Positions 4,446 to 29,303 of a DNA stretch of 64,000 nt are shown piece after piece (the first letter of the stretch is position 1; each line of letters begins with the position of its first letter). This DNA comes from Venturia oleaginea (taxonomy: Eukaryota > Ascomycota > Dothideomycetes > Venturiales > Venturiaceae). Position numbers and translations under genes: made by a program. Below the pieces are notes generated by a model. That model had not been told where the DNA came from. It made no database searches and saw only the letters and a program-made list of their open reading frames with translations. The DNA lies in assembly GCA_013176395.1 (NCBI GenBank), contig JABMLP010000012.1:620001-684000 (forward strand), in the 5' to 3' direction.

Positions 4446-7133
4446 TTAGTAATGACATTCCTCGGAATCTTCTCCAGCCTTCTTCCCATGGACACCCTCA
4501 AACTGCTCTCTCGCCTTTGGGGGTTTACTTCCATCCTCAAAGAATGACTTTGCTTTTTCCTTTCCTGATTCTGCACTGTCACATGCCTCCGAACCCTTCG
4601 GATCGTCGCTATTACGAGGCTTGTAAGGATTCATGACATCGAATAGACGATTGGCCTGTTGGTCGCCGACGGCTTGAATCGTAGTTGTGAACACCCTTCC
4701 AACCTCTTCCCATATGCCTGACGAAAAACCGTTCGGCTGCATTCTAGCCATGAACATGAGGTTGACGATGCCACACGGTATCGTGTCGCTGGAGTCGTGG
4801 ACCCAATAGAAGTGTGCGCAAAGGTCGGCTTCAAATTTGACTATGAGGACTCTCAGGACCTCCGTGCAGTTACGGTGGAAGAGCAGGTAGTCGAAGAAGA
4901 GCTCGGGAATCACGTCCTGGAGAACAGTCTGCAAATTTGACAGAAGTTCAACAGGAGTGTATGTGTGATGTTTCTCCCAGAGCTTTCGCAGTGTCTTGTC
5001 CAGCTTGGGCTGATCTTCGATGATGTGTTGTTTGGGAAACTCGGGCGTCAGTTTTGGATCAGACTTGCTGAGGCGTTTTGTGCTCGCCATCTGAGCCTTC
5101 TGGGCGATGTTTTCAACATCAGCCAACGCGAGACTAGTCTGTCGTCCGTCGTTGAAGATCCAACCATCGAGCATGGTGACTAGAGTCGAAGTACGCAAGT
5201 CCTTCATCTTACCGTTCGAAATACTGATTGGGATATTTCGACGATTCTTCGCAAAGTTTGACGCGGATACACCCTAAAGGAGACAGATTTGCCTCACGTA
5301 GGCTTTGATGTCTTTGGGTCGACCTCCGAAGAACACTACACTCTCCCCGTGATACTCGAGGACCATTTCCATATCTTTCCATTTTTTGAACGGTTCTTGA
5401 AGGAATCCTTCTTGTTGGGCGGCGTTGTAAAGGTGCGCGACATGGAGGATAGATTTACAATAATCTTCAATGGCGATCCCACGCTTATGCTGGATCAATT
5501 TGAAGCGAGCAGCGAACATCCCACACAGCATAGGATTGTGGTCCAACAACTTCCCCCTCTCGATGATCATTTTATCGTCAGCATCTTGCTCGGTCCGGCG
5601 GTTCTTTCCCTGCTTAATTGCCGGTCAGTTGAAATTTCTCGCAACCAGGATAAACGCATACTTCTTCTGGTGTGCCTGTATTCTTAAGCTGTCAGAATTA
5701 GCCGAGATCCTGCGCGATAAGGTTCTGGGGTGACTTACGTGTTTAACTCTCTCCAAAGCGTCATAAGCCGAAACCGTCCACTCGTTGACCTTCTGGTCAA
5801 GTATGTGCCTTATATTGTCGTAATGGATATCCTTGTCGCCGGATGGTAGGCCTTGGTAGAAATCCAGATGTGCTTGCAGAGTATTGCTAACACGACTTCC
5901 AATTGCGTAGAAATCCTCCAGGGCCATTCGATCAGACTGCAATTTTTTTTTGTACAGTCAGGTAGGCATCAGTATAAAATAGTAGAGAGATAGTCATATT
6001 GCCGTCAGCACTAAACTGTCGTGAGAGTTTCATGAAGTCATCCTCAGACTCAGACGATAGTTCTAGCAATTTGGACACGTTGAGGAAGTAATCCAATAGT
6101 AGTTCCTGGTCGTTGCGGAATAGTTCTCGGGGCGTCGTAGATGACGAAGCGTGTTTTGGGTGTACATGGTGAGATTCATCTTTCACTGCGCCTTGGCAGG
6201 CTAGAAGATTCTTCTCCACTGTCAGAAGCGAGCACTCGGCGGCTTCAATAGCGTCAAAGTTGAAGCTGTCACTTGAAAGTTGTTTGAAGAGCGGATCCTT
6301 CCCGGCACATTTACAGCAGCTCTCACAGTACATCCAGACGAGCTTATGACAATCGAGAGATATCATTTTCTGCATGTCGTCCTCCATAGATCGCACGAGA
6401 TTCACAGCGACGTTGGTGGTAATCGTGGCCGGGATCAAGTGGAGTTTTCTCTCATGGTAGTCGGTCCAAGTTTTGAAAACGAAACCACGGAGGTTCTCAA
6501 GCTCTTGGAAGAAGCACCACACCTTAAAGTTGGTCTCTAAAAGCCTATCGGTCTCTGAGAAGTCGACTTCAACATGAGTCTCAGATGTGCTGTGACTGGT
6601 TGTAGAGTAGTGCGGCGTCGCTGAAGAATAATTTTTCGAAACAAGATTGTCCTCTGAAGTATCGTCTAATCTAAGCGGTTCGAATCGTGAATGTAAGGAG
6701 GCGGTGCTCATGTCTTGGTTTGATGATATAGCAAGAGTGCGGTTCGTAAGAGCTCGCGAGGATTTCTTGTCCAGCAAGGGCTGTAAGATGCTTTTCAATT
6801 TCTCCAAGACTGTTACAAAATACATGTGTTGATCGCATTCCTTCGCAAGACCAGCATACCATTTTCCGTGGTCTTTTCGTACCAAGATTGCTCGTTCAAG
6901 TGTATCTAAATCTTTTGGTGGGACCGGGAACGGTGGTTCAACTGAGGCAATGTACTCTGCCAGCTTGACGAAGTCTTGAACAGAGATGATGTATGTCTGT
7001 CATGAAAATTGTTAGCGAGGAAATCTTCGGAGCACCCGAGTTTCTGCGCAGTGCATGCTAACCATTTCGCGAACGTGGTACTGTCCTCTTTGTATCGAGA
7101 GTATCTGCTGCTTAAGAATTGGAAAGATATCGT
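4446..7133 (-). pseudogene. DUF6604-family gene, broken (paralogue 1)
   Basis: On the minus strand the N-terminal DUF6604 signature YSRYKEDSTTFAKWLACTAQ is readable from 7103 down. There follow ISVQDFVKLAEYIAS (~6985), a central region (VWCFFQELENLRGFVFKTW, ~6510), GKxLDHNPMLCGMF-like sequence (~5540), WKDMEMVLEYHG and a C-terminal region (TYTPVELLSNLQ). A normal intron (GTAAGT...ATACAG) lies near 5739-5680. Breaks: no in-frame ATG precedes the N-terminal signature (ATA where Met is expected); a run of nine A (5943-5951) shifts frame; TGA at 5627-5625 and TAG near 5276 are in frame. The TAG falls where the paralogue at 17.5 kb conserves the flanking residues, so it is not explained by a short intron. 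DUF6604 proteins are fungal and of unknown function. Confidence 0.75.
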
Positions 7134-17499: not shown

Positions 17500-20358
17500 A
17501 TGTTTGATCAGGACCTGCACGATACGTATCATCATTACAAATCTAATACCACCGATGCCGCCATTTGGCTCAGAGACACCGCAGCCGAAATCGAGCAAGC
17601 TCAGAAGACAGCTTTAAACCAGGAAAATAGGTCGAATATGCCGAGAAGGAGACTTCAAAGGGAATCGAGGGAAACGGGTAGTCCTGGGATCAAAAACCAC
17701 TGGCCAAGGATCTCAGGGATCTTCTCCGACAACCGAGGCAAGTAGCACTCACCTGTGTGCCAGGATCCGTTTCTAATGTTGAGTTCCAAGAATACCGCTA
17801 CAGTAAAGCAGGACTACGAGTTGGAGAGGGAGGAGTGGGTTCCAAATGCCAGGAGAGTCGCCAGTTATTCACCACTCCTTGTCATACCCGACCACATCTT
17901 GGTTGCATTAGACCGGTCCATCAACTACCGTCAAGAGCATCGTGAAAATGTCATCAAGCGAAAGGCGCTTGGGGTGGCTCGTGGCATTGTGAATGGCGTA
18001 ACAAACATGTTCTGGAAATATGATGAAACCCATATCCACTTCATCCAGATTCTCGAGGAAGTTCGCCAGCTTTTGAGGACTATCAAACCGATCGTGGAAC
18101 CCTGGCGATCCAAGACGAGAAGTTCAAACGCTATCGAAGGAAGCTCGCCGCCCAATCTAAGCCTCAACCCACAAAATCGAATGCAGAGAACAGATATTCC
18201 CAACTCCAGACCGACGACACCGAAGATGATTTCGATGGAAAACTCTTTGTGTCGGGTGGTGATAGTGAGTTTGTTCACAACAGTATTGAACTCTCCAAAG
18301 TCCAGTACGCAACGAATGCAACGAATGAAATTCCCAAGGTGGAGGCCTACTTCGCTTTCTGGTGTTTCTCAGGGATGTGGATGGTCTCCTGGCCTTTGTT
18401 GCTCAAACATGGTCGGATTACTGCGCCGGAAAGCTAGAGCTCGCAGCCGCTGCTATCACTGTCAACACATCGACTGCTCTTGCGCGATCGATGGAGGAAA
18501 GATTCCACAGATGCTTCCCCGATCACTACAAGGATATCGTACGTGTATACCTCGAGGGTGCCCATTCCAAGTCTGAACTTGATTTGAAGTGCAAGGAACA
18601 TCCAGAAGGTACTACTCAGGGTTTGACTTATGGGGGCGTGGAGGATTCATTCCTCAATATCTACAGTGTTCTTACTACATCTCGGAAGGATTTTCACGGT
18701 GAACCCATGATGGCAGGCATATCTGATGACGGCACAACAGTCAATCAGTACTCTGCGGACAGGGCCGCGCTTTCCTGCTTTCTTTCGTCTCTGCAAGGAA
18801 TGGCCACGATGACAGATAAGATCCCCGCGGAAGACGAGTTCACCAAAGCTTCTCGCCAATTCATCTCTGACCACAAGATACCAGTCTGGTATTTGTTCGC
18901 CGCTAACGCATACCTCGTATGCCGCCGCTTAGACGCGAGCATTGAATTTGGCCGTGAGACTCTTCAAGTTGTCGCGGGAATCGCTGCCGCGACTGTCCAC
19001 GAAGAAGCAACATTTCGCGGTCATGCAGATCCCATGGGTAGAACGCAAGAATCCGATGAGTTTCTGAACTTGATCACCTGCGATCTTCGTGACTGGGTCC
19101 TTGAGGATCCGAGCTCGGAGTATGAGGACAATCTACCTGATGACAAGACAGTGTCAGAGAGGGCGGCTTTTCTTAGCATCAACCCCATCCTCTGCGGCTT
19201 GCTCCTTCTACACCTTCTAATTTTACTACACGACGAAGGTGTTAGTGTCGCGAATGAACGGGGTACAATCCAGCATGCAGGTTATCTCTACACTGCCATA
19301 CAACAAGAAGTGTTGGGAAGCTACAAACGCACGAACTACACGAATACGAGCTTCAAAAGATAATGAATTGCATGCCTTAAAAAGCTAGGAATCTACAGCA
19401 AATTTAAGTCATTTGAGTACCCTCAATTCATGCATTGATGCATGAACTTTGATGCATCAAGTACACATCAGAAACGCGGTCTTGAAACGATCTTGAAACC
19501 CAACAAGAAGAGCTTCTGGGCAAAGCTCGTATGCCCAAGGGATCCGCAACGATTGACCGCAACTGGAAAGACATGGAATATGTGATCAAGCTCTACGGCG
19601 ATACGCGATTCTTCTATGGAGCACGCCCCCGAAACCTTGAGGATTATTTCAAATAATTCTCCCTGACACTGGGATACTCCGCTACCAACTTCGCGAGCCA
19701 TCGACGCAACTCTCAGCCTCAAAATTCCAGGCAACCCAAAACGCTTGACAGGCTTGCACCCGTGTCTCTTATGTTCAGAGAGAGTGTTGTGGGTACAAAC
19801 GCTCGTACAAACTTTGATCTGGCCGACATACAGAAAATTCTGGCAAAAGTGAGATCATGCAGTAAACCGGACGAAAAACATGCCTCAATAGAGTCAGCAA
19901 CTGGCGATTTTACGAACAACGAAGGCAACGTCCAAGTGCGTTCTCATGAGCAAGCAGACAAAGAGCATGATTACACACCTGTACAATTCCTAACCGAACT
20001 TCGCGCGTCTCTCCACTCCGAATGCATGGAACTGGCTTTCGACTTCCTGCGGTTCCATCGCTTCTATCGGACCTTGTTACTCAACATCACTCGCGAGCTC
20101 AAACCCGAAGTGGAAGAAGCGGGTGCGAGGGACATGTATGGGCAATGCGAATTGCATCTTCCGATCACGGTCGGATACATCTTTATGACAGCAACTGATG
20201 TTGGACATCTGCCAAGTTTAGCTAGGGCAAAGACATGGCCTAAGAAGTCGCTCATGGCGATGCGTAAGGCGGCGAGGGTCATCAAAGAGGAGATTACAAA
20301 GGCTGGAGATTTGGAGGTCAAGGCTTTGCGGGAGTGGGGTTGGGAGGTTGATGTCTAG
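17500..20358 (+). pseudogene. DUF6604-family gene, broken (paralogue 2)
   Basis: Starts at 17500 with the DUF6604 signature TYHHYKSNTTDAAIWLRDTA. In-frame TAG at 17743. Two frameshifts follow: one near 18090-18110 (between RTIKPIVEP and DEKFKRYRRKLAAQ) and one near 18365 (between YFAFWCF and RDVDGLLAFVAQTWSDYC). A long stretch is then intact (to 19363). About 195 bp of extra sequence sits between two similar blocks (AIQQEVLG at ~19305 and ETQQEELLG at ~19497). The frame resumes with NWKDMEYVIKLYGD, has an in-frame TAA near 19655 (DYFK-stop-FSLTLGYSATNF), and ends REWGWEVDV at 20356. Co-linear with the copy at 4.4-7.1 kb on the other strand. TAG/TAA replacing Gln codons is what C-to-T mutation (RIP) produces. 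Confidence 0.75.
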
Positions 20359-22451: not shown

Positions 22452-23338
22452 ATGAGCGATTCCGACGACAATCTCGACTCTACCACTCTACTCCTCGATG
22501 AATACGTCGAGAAATCGGAAAGAATCTCATTTCGTGAGAAGAGCTGGAGCTTGGTAGCAAAAATCTACGTTCTTCTAACGACATTTGCCACGGTTCTTTC
22601 TATCTCGGTCATCATCTTGTCCATGAAGGACAAACTCGTTTTTGGGGGAGAGGCCAACAGCATCACGCCTGCTTGTAAGAATCTCCAAATTCCCATAGAG
22701 CGAATCATTTGCAATTGCTGATGATTTTTTACAGTCTCCATGGAGCTACACAGTTTCTCGCCTGCATTGGACTATTACACCCTCAATTACACCTCTGCAG
22801 AACAATCCAAAATTGTCAGACAACGCTGGCAGGATCTTCTACCCAGTCAGTTTTAAATCCCATAACTCCTTTGTTAAGAATAACGCCTAAATTGGTTTGC
22901 TATAATCCTACAGAAGGTGGAGGCAATGTTCACATTCCGAATTACAAAAGCTATCCAAAACTCAGCGTGCCATTCATCAACGCCAAAGGCCTGGAGTTAT
23001 GGAAATTGTCATGGGCCCATCAGATCCATTGTCTCTACTACATTATGAATGCATACGACGAGGTTGTCCGACTCGGTCCAACGGGCAGAGAAGGCATCGT
23101 CGAGGAGGGCCATCACTCCGTCCATACTAGCCACTGCTTTGACTACCTTCGCCAAACCATCATGTGTAATGGCGATATGACTTTGGAAGGTCGGACGGTG
23201 TTTGACAATACGAAGGGTACGGATGGGTTTGGTCATACGCATGTCTGTAGGAACCATGACCAGGTTGTACGATGGGCGGAGAAATATGCGGGACCAGATG
23301 AGGAGGCTATGATTACGATGCCTAAGGCCAGTGGGTGA
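22452..23338 (+). CDS. UstYa-family (DUF3328) oxidase-like membrane protein
   Basis: Three exons: 22452-22674, 22735-22845 and 22914-23338 (introns 60 and 68 nt); the joined frame gives 252 residues. Cytosolic N-terminus, one membrane span (VAKIYVLLTTFATVLSISVI, ~38-57), then SPALDYYTLNYT and GGGNVHIPNYKSYPKLSVPF. The two family motifs are present: HQIHCLYYI and HTSHCFDYLRQTIMCNGDMT, followed by GHTHVCRNHDQVVRW. UstYa/UstYb-type proteins are needed for oxidative cyclisation of ustiloxin-, asperipin-, phomopsin- and victorin-type peptides, and HxxHC is thought to bind the metal. Its place ~4 kb from a Kex2-type repeat precursor supports the same role here. Family seen; function inferred. Confidence 0.9.
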
Positions 23339-23963
23339 CGGAAGTCTTGGACTGATCTATTTTGAGCATTCGTGACATTGCTCTGAATTGACTTGTCAGG
23401 AAGGGAAGATCGTCTTGAAAACCGTGGATGCAGCCTCGCTCATCATTTGCTATGGTATGGATTGTCATTCTTTTCTTTGCAAGGAACCAATGAAGAAGGA
23501 CATTCAAATGTGCTTTTTTTCCACGCGTTCTGGATCCCCCACAACTTAGTGGGGGCTAGGCATGAGTCCAAGCGCGTCGCTTATTGGGTTTTTCAGCCTT
23601 GTCTATGTTAGCAATTATCGATCAAATAGATTGGCGGACAGCACCACCTTCGTGCTACACCAAAATCGTAACGGAAAGTAGAAAAGACGCAATAGGCAGC
23701 TCTCCTTGGAATGTTTGAAACATGCTCCCATATCAGGTCACACCGATACTTCTGCAGATTCGGCCTTTCGCCGGGGAAGAGCTCGACATTTTCAACTTCC
23801 CGAGACGCCGCCGAGATTCTTCGATGAGGTCGTTGAGGCTGATGTTGCATTGGCCTACAGGGGTGAGACTTCATCTGGACCGAATCACGAGCAAAAGCAA
23901 GATGGTGATCTGGAATCGTCGCCCACCGGTCTACTGTTCTCAATTCTTCTGATTTGGACTACA

Positions 23964-24704
23964 ATGGACGCTCTTATCAGATCTCTATTCGACCGCCGAA
24001 CCCATCACAGATATACGAAGACCAGCGGATATGACCACGAAGAGGGAGATGATGAAACCACTAAAGAACAAAAGGATGATAGCAGCCGTGCCATGAGGTC
24101 CATTCCAAAACCATCGGGCCTCACAACCATTCTCTTCAGCATTCTCCTCGCCGTTGGAATCATAGTCTTCGCCGCAAGTACCTGGACAATCCTCCACCAA
24201 TTGAGACACATCGAAACATCATGTGCGCCTTCCACACTCCGAAAACCATCCCCATTCACCAAAAACTGCGGCACCACGCCCTCAGAAGCACGCTCCCTCA
24301 ACTGCCGCTTCGAAATGCACAACTTCGCCTGGGTCCCACCAGAATGCTACGACGACGATCTAGGCAACGAATGGGACTCCAACCCCCATTGGGGTTTCTC
24401 CCGAAGCGCAAACGACAGCACCGACTCCGACGCCACGTTCATCGCTGAATGTCGGGCCGGGAATGTGAGTGCGGCGTGGGTGCCATGGCGTCAACATATG
24501 GCTCATTGTGCGTTGATACTGAAGAAGTATTTGAGGAGTGTGGGGAATGATAGGCCGATGGATAATTTCACTGCGAATTGGGCGCATGCGAAGCATTGTA
24601 CTGATATGATGTTGAAGAGGGATGTTGATATGGATATGTACAATAGTTTGTTGCATATTAAATTTCCGGATTGCGATTATGCGTGGCGAGGGGAGCGAGG
24701 GTGA
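23964..24704 (+). CDS. Divergent double-HxxHC membrane protein B (UstY-like)
   Basis: Single exon of 246 residues. The Met at 23964 is chosen because homologous neighbours have ~50-residue polar N-termini; the frame is also open further upstream. One membrane span (LTTILFSILLAVGIIVFAAS, ~54-73). The outer part has a Cys motif, CGTTPSEARSLNC then WVPPEC, followed by two HxxHC motifs, HMAHC and HAKHC. This is the same layout as the proteins at 25.3 and 28.6 kb, but unlike canonical UstYa it lacks the DYLRQ..MC block. Likely one of several oxidases of the RiPP-like cluster; proteins with this Cys motif have been associated with phomopsin-type clusters (from memory, unchecked). Confidence 0.75.
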   Translation: MDALIRSLFDRRTHHRYTKTSGYDHEEGDDETTKEQKDDSSRAMRSIPKPSGLTTILFSILLAVGIIVFAASTWTILHQLRHIETSCAPSTLRKPSPFTKNCGTTPSEARSLNCRFEMHNFAWVPPECYDDDLGNEWDSNPHWGFSRSANDSTDSDATFIAECRAGNVSAAWVPWRQHMAHCALILKKYLRSVGNDRPMDNFTANWAHAKHCTDMMLKRDVDMDMYNSLLHIKFPDCDYAWRGERG

Positions 24705-25331
24705 ATGGAGAGGTTTGGGAACTGGGAGGTGGTTTTGCTACGTTCTTGCGTTTTCTGTACCTATCTGCGACTTTGTTGTATTTGATGTGCCTCTTGTTTC
24801 ATGTGGCTTTCGCTGATGCGAAGTAGGTAAGATCTGGGACATCTGCATCCTAGGCAAGCTCAGCCCAAATCTACTAGTAGGAGACTGGACGATGGGTTTT
24901 TGATGTATTCATGGATTTCCTCATGGGGCTAATCAGACAATAGAAGTCCCTTGAAATAGGCGTGACGGAGCTAATGAGACAATAGAAGTTTCTTGAAATG
25001 ATAGGAGTAGCGTAAACAAACAGCACGAGTAACTAGCTCGTAGAATTGTGAATAAACTTTCGCTGCCACAAATTCCTCAGGAATTGCGTGCTGTAGTACC
25101 ATATGCGTCATATATTTCTGGGTTTCCTCTAATGAGTCAACCATCAAATTTTCGACCATTTACTCAAAGCTGCGACGGCCCATCTAGAAAATTCTCGCAT
25201 AATTCATGCTCCTCAGAAGCCCGCCTTGCCTCCTCACAACTCCAGATCCTTTACCCCAAAAATGAAAGAAACACAAGTGACCCAGATCCCGTTCCCCCAC
25301 CAACAGAAGACAGCAATAACCCTCCTCACGC
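24705..25331. other. Convergent intergenic region, nothing recognised
   Basis: Lies between the 3' ends of two convergent UstY-like genes. A near-duplicate pair occurs at ~24930-25010 (GACAATAGAAGT(C/T)(C/T)CTTGAAAT, twice). No gene seen. Confidence 0.45.
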
Positions 25332-26159
25332 TCATCGCGGCGGCAGAGCAAGCATATAGCATTTCCTCTTGACATCAAACTTCGCCTTCGTCCTCGTCAC
25401 CTCCCTCGATCTCGGCGTATCAGGATTAGTGATAAACTCCAAACAATGCCCCATATGATGCGGATCTAAATGCACATCCAAAGCAGTCGGCGGCTTCCTC
25501 TCCCGAAACGCAATAGACGTATTATGAATATACCGACAATGCTGCCAATGCTCCTCGTTGGAAACAAAGGATTCAGGTACGAGTTCGTAGTTCCCCTTCA
25601 TCAGCTCCTTTTGTGGGATTGGTCTTGTTCCGTTGCGGTCGTGGTAGAAACCCCAGTCTGTGTTGTTGGCGACGGTGAGGTACATTCTTTCGTTGAAGCA
25701 AGGGGCGGGGAGCCATCCGTAGATCATTACGTCGTAGTGGCATTTTGGGTCTTTGCGGGCGGCGTGGGAGGAGGATGTTGGGCATTGGATGTAGTGACCT
25801 TTTGGATCGATTTGGATTTCGAAGCCGTCTAGAAATTTGGGAGTCGTTTCTGTGTATGTGTATGGCTCTGTCCCTCCTGACTGCCACAGACGGATATTGA
25901 GTGTTACGACGAGGAGGAAGAGGCAGATGATGGTCCAAAGGTGGAGTCGAGAATGATCAATGCCAGTACGAGTACGTCTGTCTAAGCGCTCGGTTTGTGC
26001 GTCATCAAATGTCTCTTTTTTCGCTGTAAGATGCAAGAGCGTGCCGGAAATGGTGGTACTGTTGGATCTGGACAATTGGAATTTGTGACTATCCCCATAT
26101 TGAAGACCTATTCTCTTGAGTATTATGTTTCTGAGAAAAAGAGTCAAGCGTGCAAACAT
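25332..26159 (-). CDS. Divergent double-HxxHC membrane protein C (UstY-like)
   Basis: Single exon of 275 residues on the minus strand. The N-terminal ~85 residues are polar and basic, then one membrane span (LHLWTIICLFLLVVTLNIRL, ~89-108). The lumenal part has CPTSSSHAARKDPKCHYD then GWLPAPC, matching the Cys motif of its neighbours, and two HxxHC motifs: HWQHC and HMGHC. Two Asn-glycosylation sequons (NNT, NGT) fit a secretory-pathway location. It is convergent with protein B. Function is inferred from motif and context only. Confidence 0.72.
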   Translation of the reverse strand: MFARLTLFLRNIILKRIGLQYGDSHKFQLSRSNSTTISGTLLHLTAKKETFDDAQTERLDRRTRTGIDHSRLHLWTIICLFLLVVTLNIRLWQSGGTEPYTYTETTPKFLDGFEIQIDPKGHYIQCPTSSSHAARKDPKCHYDVMIYGWLPAPCFNERMYLTVANNTDWGFYHDRNGTRPIPQKELMKGNYELVPESFVSNEEHWQHCRYIHNTSIAFRERKPPTALDVHLDPHHMGHCLEFITNPDTPRSREVTRTKAKFDVKRKCYMLALPPR

Positions 26160-27264
26160 CTTTGACGTTCATGTGAGTTGGACTGTTTAATCCTTTCTCC
26201 CACAGGATTGATGTTGCGATTTGGCGTATCGTGCATAAATTTCGTGCCACAGATTGTATTCAGCCTTGGCACGGACGGTTTGCATGGATGTCTGAATTTC
26301 TCAGATAATAATGAGATCTCTCGGACTTTGGCGCACGATGCACGGGCAGTCTTTCATTCCGTGGATGTCGGCTGATATATTATAGCCGTCAAGTCGTGGA
26401 GTCATCTCCATCTCCGGAATCATTGGGAAGGTGAAAACTACATCCTCAGCTACCATTTAATTAGACAGGAGCAATGTCCCACATGGACGGAGAACAAGGA
26501 GTGGATCAATCTTAGCCTCGCTTATCTAATATGTGCAGCACATAGGAAATGTATTTTTATCTTTCCTCAGGATTGACGTAATTCAGTTCGTATTCTGAAT
26601 ATAGAAGTTAACGAGTTAGGAGCCTTATAGAGATTAGGGTCTGCACCCTGCCAATTTTTTATGAGTTTTGTCTCGGGCCGATAATCGGATAATCGGGAAG
26701 GTACTATGGTGCCCACTACCTATGGTTCTAGTGAGTGTCAAGCAGCCCTAACCTTGTCAGCCTTGCCTCGCATCCGCTTTACAGCAAAAATCCCCCGCAA
26801 ATCCTTGCAACAATTTTGAGAGTAGATTTCATTACTTAATCTTCGTGTTTTAGCTAGGTTCTGCTGTGGGGTAGAGCTCTTGGAATCACTCAGTCGGTTA
26901 GTCAAACACTTGAGATTGTCCATCCACGTTGATAGATAAACCACAATAAAAGCAAGTCCCAACGATACCTATAGGAAGGTCGCAGACTCGTGTGCTACGG
27001 ATAAATTAGGGAGATGTTCGAGGTTGCTGAGAATACCGAACGTGCCCCGAAGTAATGTGTGCTGGCTGCCAACTCGTATTTCCTCTCTGGCTCATCCCGA
27101 CTGAAAGTCAGTGTGCATGGTATTATTCCAGCTAGGACTATCGCAGCAGAAGCTCATAGTTGTGGGTGTGAATGTTTATAAGGTCTCGAGACCGAAGGCA
27201 GTCATTCCTCACCCGATTTCAATACACTTTGCTTAACTATTTCAACCATCCAAATTTAACCAAG
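26160..27264. other. Intergenic region upstream of the precursor gene
   Basis: No gene supported. It must contain the promoters of protein C (minus) and of the precursor peptide gene (plus). A TATA-like TATAAG lies at 27177-27182, about 85 nt before the precursor ATG. Confidence 0.4.
27177..27182 (+). promoter_or_regulatory. TATA-like element of the precursor peptide gene
   Basis: TATAAG sits 83 nt upstream of the ATG at 27265, a plausible spacing for a highly expressed secreted peptide gene with a short 5' leader. Not proven. Confidence 0.3.
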
Positions 27265-27599
27265 ATGCGTTATTCAACTGTCATACTCGCGGTCGTTCCC
27301 GCAGCCTTCACGGCTGTGAATGGAGCAGCCGTTCCTTCTGGTACACTCAGCTCCAGAATCTTAGATTCGACGTTAGATGGCTAACGTGATTTCGGTAAGC
27401 AGATAACAGCGTTGCGTCTAGCGCCAACGCCGCCAATGTGGCTCCTCTAAACGTCGACGACACCAAATATGCTTGGTACAACTTCAAGCGCGACGGGGCC
27501 GCGCTCAAGGCTGCAGCGCCGCCAGATGTCGATGACACCAAATATGCGTGGTACAACTTCAAGCGCGATGAGGCTGCGGCAAATGCTGCTCAGGAATAG
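27265..27599 (+). CDS. RiPP (Kex2-processed repeat) precursor peptide
   Basis: Two exons, 27265-27340 and 27403-27599, flank a 62-nt intron (GTACAC...GCTAAC...AAGCAG) and encode 90 residues. Residues 1-20 form a signal peptide (MRYSTVILAVVPAAFTAVNG). After an Ala/Asn-rich leader, VDDTKYAWYNFKRD occurs twice, at 43-56 and 68-81, identical at protein level with a 25-residue period; the second copy is followed by an acidic/Ala tail. Each repeat ends in Lys-Arg, a Kex2 site, so processing would release two copies of the same aromatic core (YAWYNF or slightly longer). Secretion signal, repeated short core, acidic spacers and dibasic sites are the defining features of ustiloxin/asperipin/victorin-type precursors. 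Neighbouring UstYa-type genes support this. The product structure is unknown. Confidence 0.87.
27453..27569 (+). repeat. Two core-peptide coding repeats, 75-bp period
   Basis: 42-bp units at 27453-27494 and 27528-27569 encode the identical 14 residues VDDTKYAWYNFKRD. They differ only at synonymous third positions (GAC/GAT, GCT/GCG and the final GAC/GAT), which suggests selection on the peptide rather than a very recent duplication. Confidence 0.9.
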
Positions 27600-28571
27600 A
27601 TTGTTGATGGTAATCTTGCTGTTGAGATGTTCGGGGATGACATCTTTCGGATGGATGTCAACATAGCACGTGTGGTTGCTATATAAATTGAAATTCCATA
27701 ATATTTGACAACGATGACTTTTTTGCCGGTCTAGAGTCCATTAGCCTTGATATTATGAGCTCCTAACCTCTTCCTTGAACGCAAATTATTAATAACATTA
27801 CACGCAAGGGTGCGACACCCCTGATTGGTATACTTTTGCCCATGTGCGAGCAGAAAAAGAAATCAGATCCTTCCCGCGTGCGGATGCAAGCCTTAAACGC
27901 ACTACCTTTAAAGCATACTGTCGTATCCGGGAAAAATAACGTGCAAAGTAGATTCGGCGACCTTGTTGAAAGTTGCGACCCTATTTATCACATAAATGTG
28001 CGGAGGTGCGTTACGAGAAATTTTCCCGGAAAAGTTGAAAAAATGCTGGCATGTTCCTAAGCTTGGGTCAAGAATGACTAAAGATTGTGGGTCGTTCAAT
28101 CAATACTTGTACTGTTGCACATTCCTGACCAATACTACGCGAGCATGATCTGCGGACAAAACTGCGTGTATGAACAGTTGTTGGACATTGGGGCGAGTTA
28201 TTGTTATAAGTATGCCAAGCAGCGGTGGCTTAGATCTACTACGTCTGGAGAGTGTAAAATGTTTTAGGACCTGGCAAGCGATCCGTGCCTAACATTTAAA
28301 GGCCTTGAGACCGTAGTATGTAACCTCCAGCTAAGCATTCCGCGATCATAATATAGGTAGGTTAGCAAGTTCGGACAGAGCGAAATGAGATAACCTAAGT
28401 ACTCATCATGTAAGGGCACCCTTCGTTTCCCATTTTCATGTAGGTAACCCTTCTGCTGACATATTTCGGTTGACCAAACAGTTCTTGACGGTCCGTAGCG
28501 CCCATGCTCCTTTTGGTCCCAAAAAAGCCTAGTCGCAACGCCAGCATCCCCTATACGTCTTACTCGTCAAC
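27600..28571. other. Intergenic region, nothing recognised
   Basis: Between the precursor gene and protein D. Several short frames, none convincing. No tailoring-enzyme gene fits here. Confidence 0.45.
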
Positions 28572-29303
28572 ATGTATAGATCCCTCTTACAAGCAAAGCA
28601 AGAGGAGGAACTCATAGACGAGCCAGCACCTGAGGGACACGAAATTGGTTTTGGGAGGACGCAAAAGCCCGGATTTACAAAATTCAATCCATTCGGAGAT
28701 GGGACAGGGTCTTTCCTGAACATCCTGTGGAAGGTTTTCGTCTTCGGTCTCGCCATTTGGGGGTTCCTCGACTTGTCTCGACGCGTGGTGCAGACATGGC
28801 GGTTCGAGACGACAATAAGCGCAAGCGATGCAATATCTCACTGCAAACATTATTGCGGCAACAGTCCTGCAGAAGCTTTCGAAAAGGGATGCATATTCGA
28901 CCCCTTGGAAACAAGATTGACAAGACCGGAGTGCGTCAATGCGGACTTGAACAGAGAATTCGTGCAACTTGGTCGAGGACCAAACGGAACGCACCTTTAC
29001 GGATTGGAGGAGGAAGACGGGATTCGCAAAGTCGGAGGTCCGGAATTGCTTGAAGCGATCAAACCTGGACTAGTTGTATGGGAGTCAACATGGTGGCATC
29101 TGACGCATTGCATCTTCATGTATAGGAAAGCGGTCTTGAGTCGTTTTGACGGCGTGCTGCTTAGTATGACTCGGGAAGAGCAAGAGAAGCATGATCATCA
29201 CTGCGGAAGGATGCTCATAAACCACCTTTCCAAGGGGCCAGAGGTTGACGAGTATAGTGGGCACATGCATTTTGGAAACAAGACCGAAGCGCGGACAAAG
29301 TGA
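28572..29303 (+). CDS. Divergent double-HxxHC membrane protein D (UstY-like)
   Basis: Single exon of 243 residues. Polar N-terminus of ~50 residues, one membrane span (ILWKVFVFGLAIWGFLDLS, ~51-69). Then the Cys motif CGNSPAEAFEKGCIFD...RPEC, and the two HxxHC motifs HLTHC and HDHHC. Closely parallels protein B in layout: C-G-x-[ST]-P-x-E-A-x(3-4)-C. It is the last recognisable gene of the RiPP-like cluster; a pogo element starts ~170 bp downstream. Putative oxidase of precursor maturation (inference). Confidence 0.75.
   Translation: MYRSLLQAKQEEELIDEPAPEGHEIGFGRTQKPGFTKFNPFGDGTGSFLNILWKVFVFGLAIWGFLDLSRRVVQTWRFETTISASDAISHCKHYCGNSPAEAFEKGCIFDPLETRLTRPECVNADLNREFVQLGRGPNGTHLYGLEEEDGIRKVGGPELLEAIKPGLVVWESTWWHLTHCIFMYRKAVLSRFDGVLLSMTREEQEKHDHHCGRMLINHLSKGPEVDEYSGHMHFGNKTEARTK

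What the first reader, a model, noticed from the sequence alone, without database searches (positions are those of the whole stretch)
22452..29303. A compact, apparently undescribed RiPP (dikaritin-type) gene cluster
Seen: a 90-residue secreted precursor with two exact VDDTKYAWYNFKRD repeats ending in Kex2 Lys-Arg, within 7 kb of four membrane proteins that each have two HxxHC motifs, one of them a textbook UstYa/DUF3328 protein. Established: ustiloxin, phomopsin, asperipin and victorin loci pair exactly these two gene types. I do not recall a described product with a YAWYNF core, which has three aromatic side chains suited to oxidative cross-linking.
Basis: partly seen in the sequence, partly recalled or inferred. 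Interest (0 to 1): 0.92.

Follow-up and report, generated by a model that had tools for sequence, protein, structure and literature searches.

The report
Fungal oxidised-peptide (dikaritin-type) gene cluster
A small fungal gene cluster appears to make a secreted six-residue peptide rich in ring-shaped amino acids and to cross-link it with copper enzymes; it belongs to a known kind of pathway, but three of its four enzymes come from a branch that the standard family model misses.

Summary
Two exact VDDTKYAWYNFKRD copies lie in a predicted secreted precursor (about 90 aa, one intron), among four membrane-type proteins with two HxxHC motifs each, within 6.9 kb. Only gene A is a Pfam UstYa/DUF3328 protein (87.6 bits). 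B, C and D score below or miss that model. They form a second family ("type II", my name), with both motifs invariant in 21 aligned members; 20 of 20 database relatives carry no Pfam label. In the same genome, two of three other intact type-II loci also adjoin UstYa and Kex2-repeat genes. Best explanation: a compact dikaritin-like RiPP cluster in which Kex2 releases peptides ending in YAWYNF and lumenal copper oxidases cross-link its aromatic side chains. The product is inferred, not shown. Such clusters are common: 7 of 13 UstYa loci read here have a Kex2-repeat gene. The precursor has no detected relative and its core is in none of the searched papers. Corrections: the core has four aromatics, not three; B-D do not pass as DUF3328. 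Verdict: new variant of a known kind.

The parts
22452..23338 (+). Gene A: UstYa/DUF3328 protein, 252 aa; exons 22452-22674, 22735-22845, 22914-23338 (my model)
   Evidence: PF11807 E 1.4e-24, 87.6 bits; HQIHC and HTSHC; of 11 database relatives 10 are 49-83% and one 34% identical over the aligned parts
23964..24704 (+). Gene B: type-II double-HxxHC membrane-type protein, 246 aa, one exon
   Evidence: HMAHC and HAKHC; relatives 38-67% identical over the aligned parts, several from named Ascomycota; AlphaFold2 mean pLDDT 80.3, long N-terminal helix then HxxHC helices; PF11807 only 17.9 bits
25332..26159 (-). Gene C: type-II double-HxxHC membrane-type protein, 275 aa, one exon
   Evidence: HWQHC and HMGHC; two relatives at 63-64% identity; no Pfam match
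27265..27599 (+). Precursor gene, 90 aa (91 or 94 by other splice choices); exons 27265-27340 and 27403-27599, intron 27341-27402 in the preferred model
   Evidence: signal-like N-terminus, two Kex2 repeats; no homologue found
27453..27494 (+). First VDDTKYAWYNFKRD repeat (putative core YAWYNF before Kex2 site KR)
   Evidence: exact match, 0 expected
27528..27569 (+). Second VDDTKYAWYNFKRD repeat, 75 nt downstream
   Evidence: exact peptide match; 3 of 3 DNA differences synonymous
28572..29303 (+). Gene D: type-II double-HxxHC membrane-type protein, 243 aa, one exon
   Evidence: HLTHC and HDHHC; PF11807 15.8 bits, below cut-off; only distant relatives, 20-31% identical

Best explanation
This is a five-gene, dikaritin-like RiPP cluster. 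The precursor enters the ER by its signal peptide. The Golgi protease Kex2 cuts after Lys-Arg and releases peptides that end in YAWYNF; a host carboxypeptidase presumably trims the Lys-Arg. Four membrane proteins (A to D), anchored by an N-terminal helix with their C-terminal domains in the lumen, each bind two coppers through a paired HxxHC motif. Using O2, they oxidatively cross-link or hydroxylate the Tyr, Trp and Phe side chains to give a cyclic, perhaps bicyclic, peptide, as AprY does on FYYTGY to make asperipin-2a. No tyrosinase is needed. Shown here: the precursor architecture, the motifs, the membership of A in UstYa, the repeated co-location of both enzyme families with Kex2-repeat genes, and the predicted HxxHC helices of B. 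Inferred: copper binding, topology, which residues are joined, the division of labour among A to D, release and biological role.
For: Repeats far above chance, with only synonymous differences. A is UstYa. The same genome has PF11807 matches at 15 loci. Of 13 read, 7 (this one included) carry KR-repeat frames with a signal-like start in or just upstream of the frame, against 0 KR-repeat ORFs in 40 Markov sequences of 64 kb. Intact type-II genes sit at four loci. Of the three others, C5 and C9 adjoin UstYa and a Kex2-repeat gene (binomial 1.3e-4). The AF2 model of B puts each HxxHC in one of two consecutive helices after a long N-terminal helix, as described for CctR, whose motif binds two coppers (PMC12435403, whole main text read). 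That paper also states that AprY is copper- and O2-dependent.
Against: No expression or product data. The precursor has only two repeats and no detectable homologue, so conservation of the core is untested. B, C and D are only weakly tied to UstYa by sequence. A further type-II relative at C5 720.8 kb has both motifs changed (FVVHC, HTELC), so the metal site is not kept in every relative. The A-orthologue model was poor (pLDDT 44.7). No transporter, peptidase or other tailoring gene was seen beside the cluster, but only selected ORFs were scanned. 6 of 13 UstYa loci read showed no repeat gene by my scan. The unit of 23 aa plus KR is longer than the 13, 14 and 8 aa given for the ustiloxin, phomopsin and asperipin-2a precursors (PMC7329392).
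Confidence: 0.8

Rival explanations
1. The precursor gives a linear secreted signalling peptide (a pheromone- or effector-like Kex2-repeat protein) and the neighbouring oxidases serve another substrate.
For: Most Kex2-repeat proteins (6120 of 7878) have no DUF3328 gene among the 15 nearest genes (PMC7329392). The precursor is small and has only two repeats.
Against: Kex2-repeat genes annotated as mating factors or pheromones lack DUF3328 neighbours in all but 3 cases in that survey. Here the precursor sits between C and D, and YAWYNF is rich in cross-linkable aromatics. The type-II/UstYa/Kex2-repeat association recurs at C5 and C9.
Confidence: 0.13
2. B, C and D are not oxidases but accessory membrane proteins (substrate receptors, dimer partners or electron/copper donors) that work with A alone as the enzyme.
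For: Sequence link to UstYa is weak: hhalign probability 0.9% with small profiles and 37% over 43 columns with wider ones. Asperipin-2a needs a single UstYa protein (PMC6514808). One type-II relative, C5 720.8 kb, has lost both intact motifs.
Against: All four histidines and both cysteines of the two motifs are invariant in 21 of 21 aligned type-II members, which suggests a working metal site in B, C and D.
Confidence: 0.3
3. The co-location is chance and the two repeats are an unexpressed or decaying frame.
For: Transposase ORFs lie elsewhere in the window; no RNA data.
Against: Repeat differences are 3 of 3 synonymous. B, C and D are uninterrupted frames and A reads through with two predicted introns. 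The same gene types co-occur at C5 and C9.
Confidence: 0.04

Closest known systems
Asperipin-2a cluster (aprA, aprY, aprT, aprR) of Aspergillus flavus
   Same: Compact cluster, Kex2-repeat precursor, aromatic-rich hexapeptide core (FYYTGY against YAWYNF), UstYa-type oxidase, no tyrosinase among its four genes (PMC6514808, passages read)
   Different: Here one UstYa plus three type-II proteins; a Trp in the core; no transporter or reductase seen; two repeats only
Phomopsin cluster
   Same: Several oxidase genes around a KR-repeat precursor (five DUF3328 genes, PMC7329392 passages)
   Different: YVIP core; uses a tyrosinase and a methyltransferase (PMC6514808 passages), neither seen here. Whether any of its five proteins is of type II could not be checked
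Ustiloxin B cluster
   Same: Signal peptide, Kex2 repeats, UstYa
   Different: 15 co-regulated genes, tyrosinase, YAIG core, 13-aa repeats (PMC7329392 and PMC6514808 passages)
CctR (cyclochlorotine hydroxylase), DUF3328
   Same: TM helix, lumenal domain and HxxHC(x)nHxxHC helices, as in the model of B (PMC12435403, whole main text)
   Different: Acts on a non-ribosomal peptide and hydroxylates; B-D lie below the DUF3328 model's cut-off
Victorin
   Same: Multi-core precursor, likely Kex2-processed, with a Phe cross-link (PMC9233826, passages read)
   Different: Phe joined to Leu, and chlorinated; cluster genes not compared here

Membership tests
Kex2-processed repeat proteins (KEPs) | N-terminal signal peptide | tested here: met
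   Hydrophobic N-terminus, 10-residue hydropathy mean up to 2.26 in the window starting at residue 7; no dedicated predictor was run
Kex2-processed repeat proteins (KEPs) | Repeated units bounded by Lys-Arg | tested here: met
   Two exact VDDTKYAWYNFKRD copies
Dikaritins / ust-RiPS | DUF3328 (UstYa) gene close to the precursor | tested here: met
   Gene A, PF11807 87.6 bits, about 4 kb away
Dikaritins / ust-RiPS | Tyrosinase gene (original Ding et al. definition, as given in PMC12048977) | tested here: not met
   25 PF00264 matches listed in the genome, none on contig C4. Later definitions drop this; the asperipin-2a cluster has none either
Dikaritins / ust-RiPS | Methyltransferase, transporter or peptidase gene | tested here: inconclusive
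   None among the 25 proteins outside the cluster given to Pfam, but not every ORF of the window was scanned
Dikaritins / ust-RiPS | Oxidatively cyclised core peptide | not testable with these tools
   Needs LC-MS
UstYa/DUF3328 (PF11807), genes B, C, D | Score above the curated cut-off (25 bits) | tested here: not met
   B 16.5-17.9, D 15.8, C none; PF11807 at E<=1 in 3 of 21 type-II members, best E 1.7e-4
UstYa/DUF3328 (PF11807), genes B, C, D | HxxHC(x)nHxxHC after a TM segment | tested here: met
   Both motifs in each and a strong hydrophobic segment before them; motifs invariant in 21 of 21 aligned; consecutive helices in B
UstYa/DUF3328, genes A-D | Binuclear copper and O2 dependence | not testable with these tools
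   Shown for CctR in PMC12435403, not for these proteins

The most novel reading that the evidence does not exclude
B, C and D represent a distinct, widespread family of double-HxxHC copper oxidases that the UstYa model misses and that works beside UstYa on Kex2-released peptides. Together the four enzymes cross-link Tyr, Trp and Phe in YAWYNF, giving a multiply cross-linked fungal peptide with a Trp linkage.
Probability: 0.4. Interest if true: 0.72.

Novelty: new variant of a known kind. Interest (0 to 1): 0.5.

Why it matters
Surveys that rely on the PF11807 cut-off would see one cyclase gene here, not four, and would miss any cluster that holds type-II proteins only. Type-II relatives are in several Ascomycota and lie beside Kex2-repeat genes at three loci of this genome, so the family can be used to find more such clusters. 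The YAWYNF core is a short, testable substrate for asking whether these enzymes can join Trp as well as Tyr.

Tried and rejected
Precursor homologues: none, in the own genome beyond itself or among 7 candidates of the protein database. A shared upstream motif: the GGTCTCGAGACC palindrome beside the precursor's TATA-like box (my reading) has no second exact copy in the window and is not enriched, and 8-10-mers shared by three or more of the five upstream regions were no more frequent than in random sets. Solved relatives: none by sequence for A, only an unrelated E 0.5 match for the type-II profile, no Foldseek hit for the B model. The A-orthologue model was too poor to use beyond noting the helices around each HxxHC. 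The geometry of the motif residues in B was not measured. NCBIfam gave nothing relevant for B, C, D, P0021, P0008. Direct homology of type II to UstYa was tested three ways and is suggestive only. Naming the organism was not possible; the named hits are mostly Dothideomycetes and Sordariomycetes (class names recalled).

Rows left out of counts: P0019 and P0020 were left out of alignment A2 and. P0019 has Tyr in place of the first conserved Cys and ends just after the first HxxHC; P0020 lacks both motifs. P0029 was left out of A3; P0023, P0029 and P0030 out of the UstYa profile. Two PF11807 loci on contig C2 were not read. C34 was read on one side only; C17, C18 and C59 to about 4-5 kb each side. 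At C5 a KR-repeat frame also exists on the other strand; I took the strand with a signal-like start. The count of intact type-II loci leaves out two equal-scoring, stop-bearing matches on C15 and the C5 720.8-kb gene with changed motifs.
Full report
What is there. The window is part of contig C4 (620001-684000) of an unnamed 46.1-Mb, 61-contig genome, fungal by its gene content (my reading). In 22452-29303 there are five genes: A (UstYa), B, C (minus strand), a precursor, and D. The two repeats VDDTKYAWYNFKRD are exact at peptide level, are not expected by chance, and differ at three nucleotides that are all synonymous. The precursor needs an intron; three GT-AG choices give 90, 91 or 94 residues and none disturbs the signal-like start or the repeats. 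I prefer 27341-27402, which ends in CAG and has a CTAAC branch-like site.

The enzymes. A passes the curated UstYa model easily (87.6 bits against 25). B, C and D each keep two HxxHC motifs after a strong hydrophobic segment, but score below the model (B 16.5-17.9, D 15.8) or not at all (C). With database relatives they align as one family. Its invariant columns in 21 of 21 aligned sequences include three cysteines (C102, C114, C128 of B) and the six histidines and cysteines of the two motifs; three paralogues from the own genome keep them too. Two of the 20 database hits, both left out of that alignment as truncated or odd models, do not fit: P0019 lacks the first Cys and ends after the first motif, and P0020 lacks both motifs. 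None of the 20 database hits carries a precomputed Pfam label, whereas 11 of 11 hits of A carry PF11807. I call this family type II; the name is mine. Its relation to UstYa is suggestive only: hhalign gave probability 0.9% with small profiles and 37%, E 3.6e-4, with wider ones, the latter aligning both HxxHC motifs in order over 43 columns. The AlphaFold2 model of B (mean pLDDT 80.3, pTM 0.61) has a long helix at 53-86 over the hydrophobic segment and the two motifs (178-182, 208-212) in consecutive helices 175-194 and 206-216. This agrees with the arrangement reported for CctR, where the motif binds two coppers and the enzyme uses O2 (PMC12435403, whole main text); I did not measure the motif geometry.

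Distribution. A has hits in Macrophomina, Lasiodiplodia, Pyrenophora, Bipolaris, Exserohilum, Pseudocercospora, Colletotrichum and, more distantly, Xylaria, and an 83%-identical partial hit of unnamed source. B has hits in Macrophomina, Lasiodiplodia, Colletotrichum, Pyricularia and Periconia. C has two 63-64% relatives, and D none of comparable closeness. B and C homologues P0001 and P0002 share a contig length of 2,795. A shared contig is inferred from these lengths; the contigs themselves could not be read.

The same genome as a control. PF11807 matches fall at 15 loci. I read 13, some only in part. Seven have a KR-repeat frame with a signal-like start in or just upstream of it, judged by eye; splicing was modelled only for the window. 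They are this one; C9 (YEDIIRDVSDRETGGVIANKKR type, six copies in one frame); C5 (PLFAKxDKREAEA type); C7 (ADAGMSYYKR, over ten copies); C12 (a long unit with TAYDDEI, ending in LGKR); C34 (EPYAYV..VEKR); C17 (AEAYQGFNNKVSKEKR). C1, C20, C45, C22, C59 and C18 showed none. Forty Markov sequences of 64 kb gave no KR-repeat ORF. The rest of the real window gave one, in a short repeat frame near 49.9 kb with no signal start that I could see, so the Markov control is somewhat too clean. Type-II genes with both motifs intact occur at C4 (three), C5, C9 and C60 (one each); C5 has a second relative with both motifs changed, and C15 two stop-bearing matches. C5 and C9 also hold UstYa and a Kex2-repeat gene; C60 showed no UstYa match and no KR-repeat ORF in the 20 kb read. 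Two of three other loci within 10 kb of a UstYa locus has a binomial chance of 1.3e-4; it would be somewhat higher if the C15 matches were counted. Thus the association seen in the window is general, and the cluster itself is not rare in kind.

Surroundings. Thirty proteins of the window, 25 of them outside the five cluster genes, went to Pfam. Outside the cluster the matches over a curated cut-off were DUF6604, DUF7029/DUF7223, PLD-like, chalcone-isomerase-like, SET, ribosomal S7e, a 2OG-Fe(II) oxygenase, Pal1 and two transposases. Nothing there looks like a partner of the cluster, and no listed tyrosinase match lies on C4. Not every ORF was scanned, so an undetected partner is possible.

How it probably works. 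From the papers: Kex2 is taken to release the repeats in the secretory route, UstYa-type proteins are needed to cyclise the core, and AprY makes bicyclic asperipin-2a from FYYTGY in a four-gene cluster without a tyrosinase (PMC6514808 and PMC7329392, passages read). AprY and CctR need copper and O2 (PMC12435403). By analogy YAWYNF, with aromatic residues at four of six positions, would be joined through aryl ether or carbon links by A with B, C and D. That step, and what the product does, are inference.

Novelty. The core and its extensions appear in no paper of the searched library (three sequence terms matched anywhere in the text). In a survey of 1461 strains, 2560 of 7878 Kex2-repeat proteins had no homolog (PMC7329392, abstract and section 6 part 1 read), so an orphan core is ordinary. 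The less ordinary part is the type-II family. Fifteen papers contain 'HXXHC', several of them unrelated (listing only). I read passages of PMC12048977 and the whole main text of PMC12435403 and saw no second family there. Subscription papers were mostly not available; the original phomopsin paper is not held and the victorin paper was not looked up, so earlier description elsewhere is possible.

Noticed in passing
G000:C9 about 679.1-684.9 kb (loci L022, L023): Another cluster: precursor frame with repeats KR-YEDIIRDVSDRETGGVIANK, two UstYa genes and one type-II gene. YEDI loosely resembles the Y.I. cores of ustiloxin and phomopsin.
   Followed up: partly
G000:C5 about 720.3-729.7 kb (loci L024, L025): Cluster with a KREAEA-type precursor (PLFAK repeats, no Tyr in the unit), one UstYa and two type-II genes. 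The type-II gene at 720.8 kb has both motifs changed (FVVHC, HTELC): perhaps a non-catalytic partner.
   Followed up: partly
G000:C7 about 75.1-78.6 kb (loci L029, L030): Over ten ADAGMSYYKR repeats beside a UstYa gene.
   Followed up: partly
G000:C12 842.6-849.8 kb; C34 1310.0-1310.5 kb; C17 574.9-575.4 kb: Three more KR-repeat genes with signal-like starts beside UstYa genes (TAYDDEI, EPYAYV and AEAYQGFNN units).
   Followed up: partly
G000:C60 922.7-923.4 kb (loci L027, L028): A type-II gene with no UstYa match and no KR-repeat ORF found in the 20 kb read; its partner is unknown.
   Followed up: partly
G000:C15 25961-26479 (-) and 146355-146873 (+): Two matches to a type-II protein with equal scores, opposite strands and the same tally of in-frame stops: probably an inverted duplication of a decayed or intron-split gene.
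   Followed up: no
G000:C19 36152-36721 and C41 36963-37532: Tyrosinase matches with identical scores at similar distances from the contig starts; perhaps duplicated contig ends or an assembly duplicate.
   Followed up: no
window 14.4-16.0, 36.6-38.0, 47.5-52.4 and 55.2-57.3 kb: Several transposase-like ORFs, DDE_3 by Pfam for those at 14.4-16.0 and 48.5-49.7 kb; the rest by eye.
   Followed up: partly
window 5932-6999 (-) and 17746-19363 (+): Two DUF6604 genes, each with an ORF just beyond it that looks alike by eye (4446-5273 - and 19657-20358 +): a repeated gene pair.
   Followed up: no
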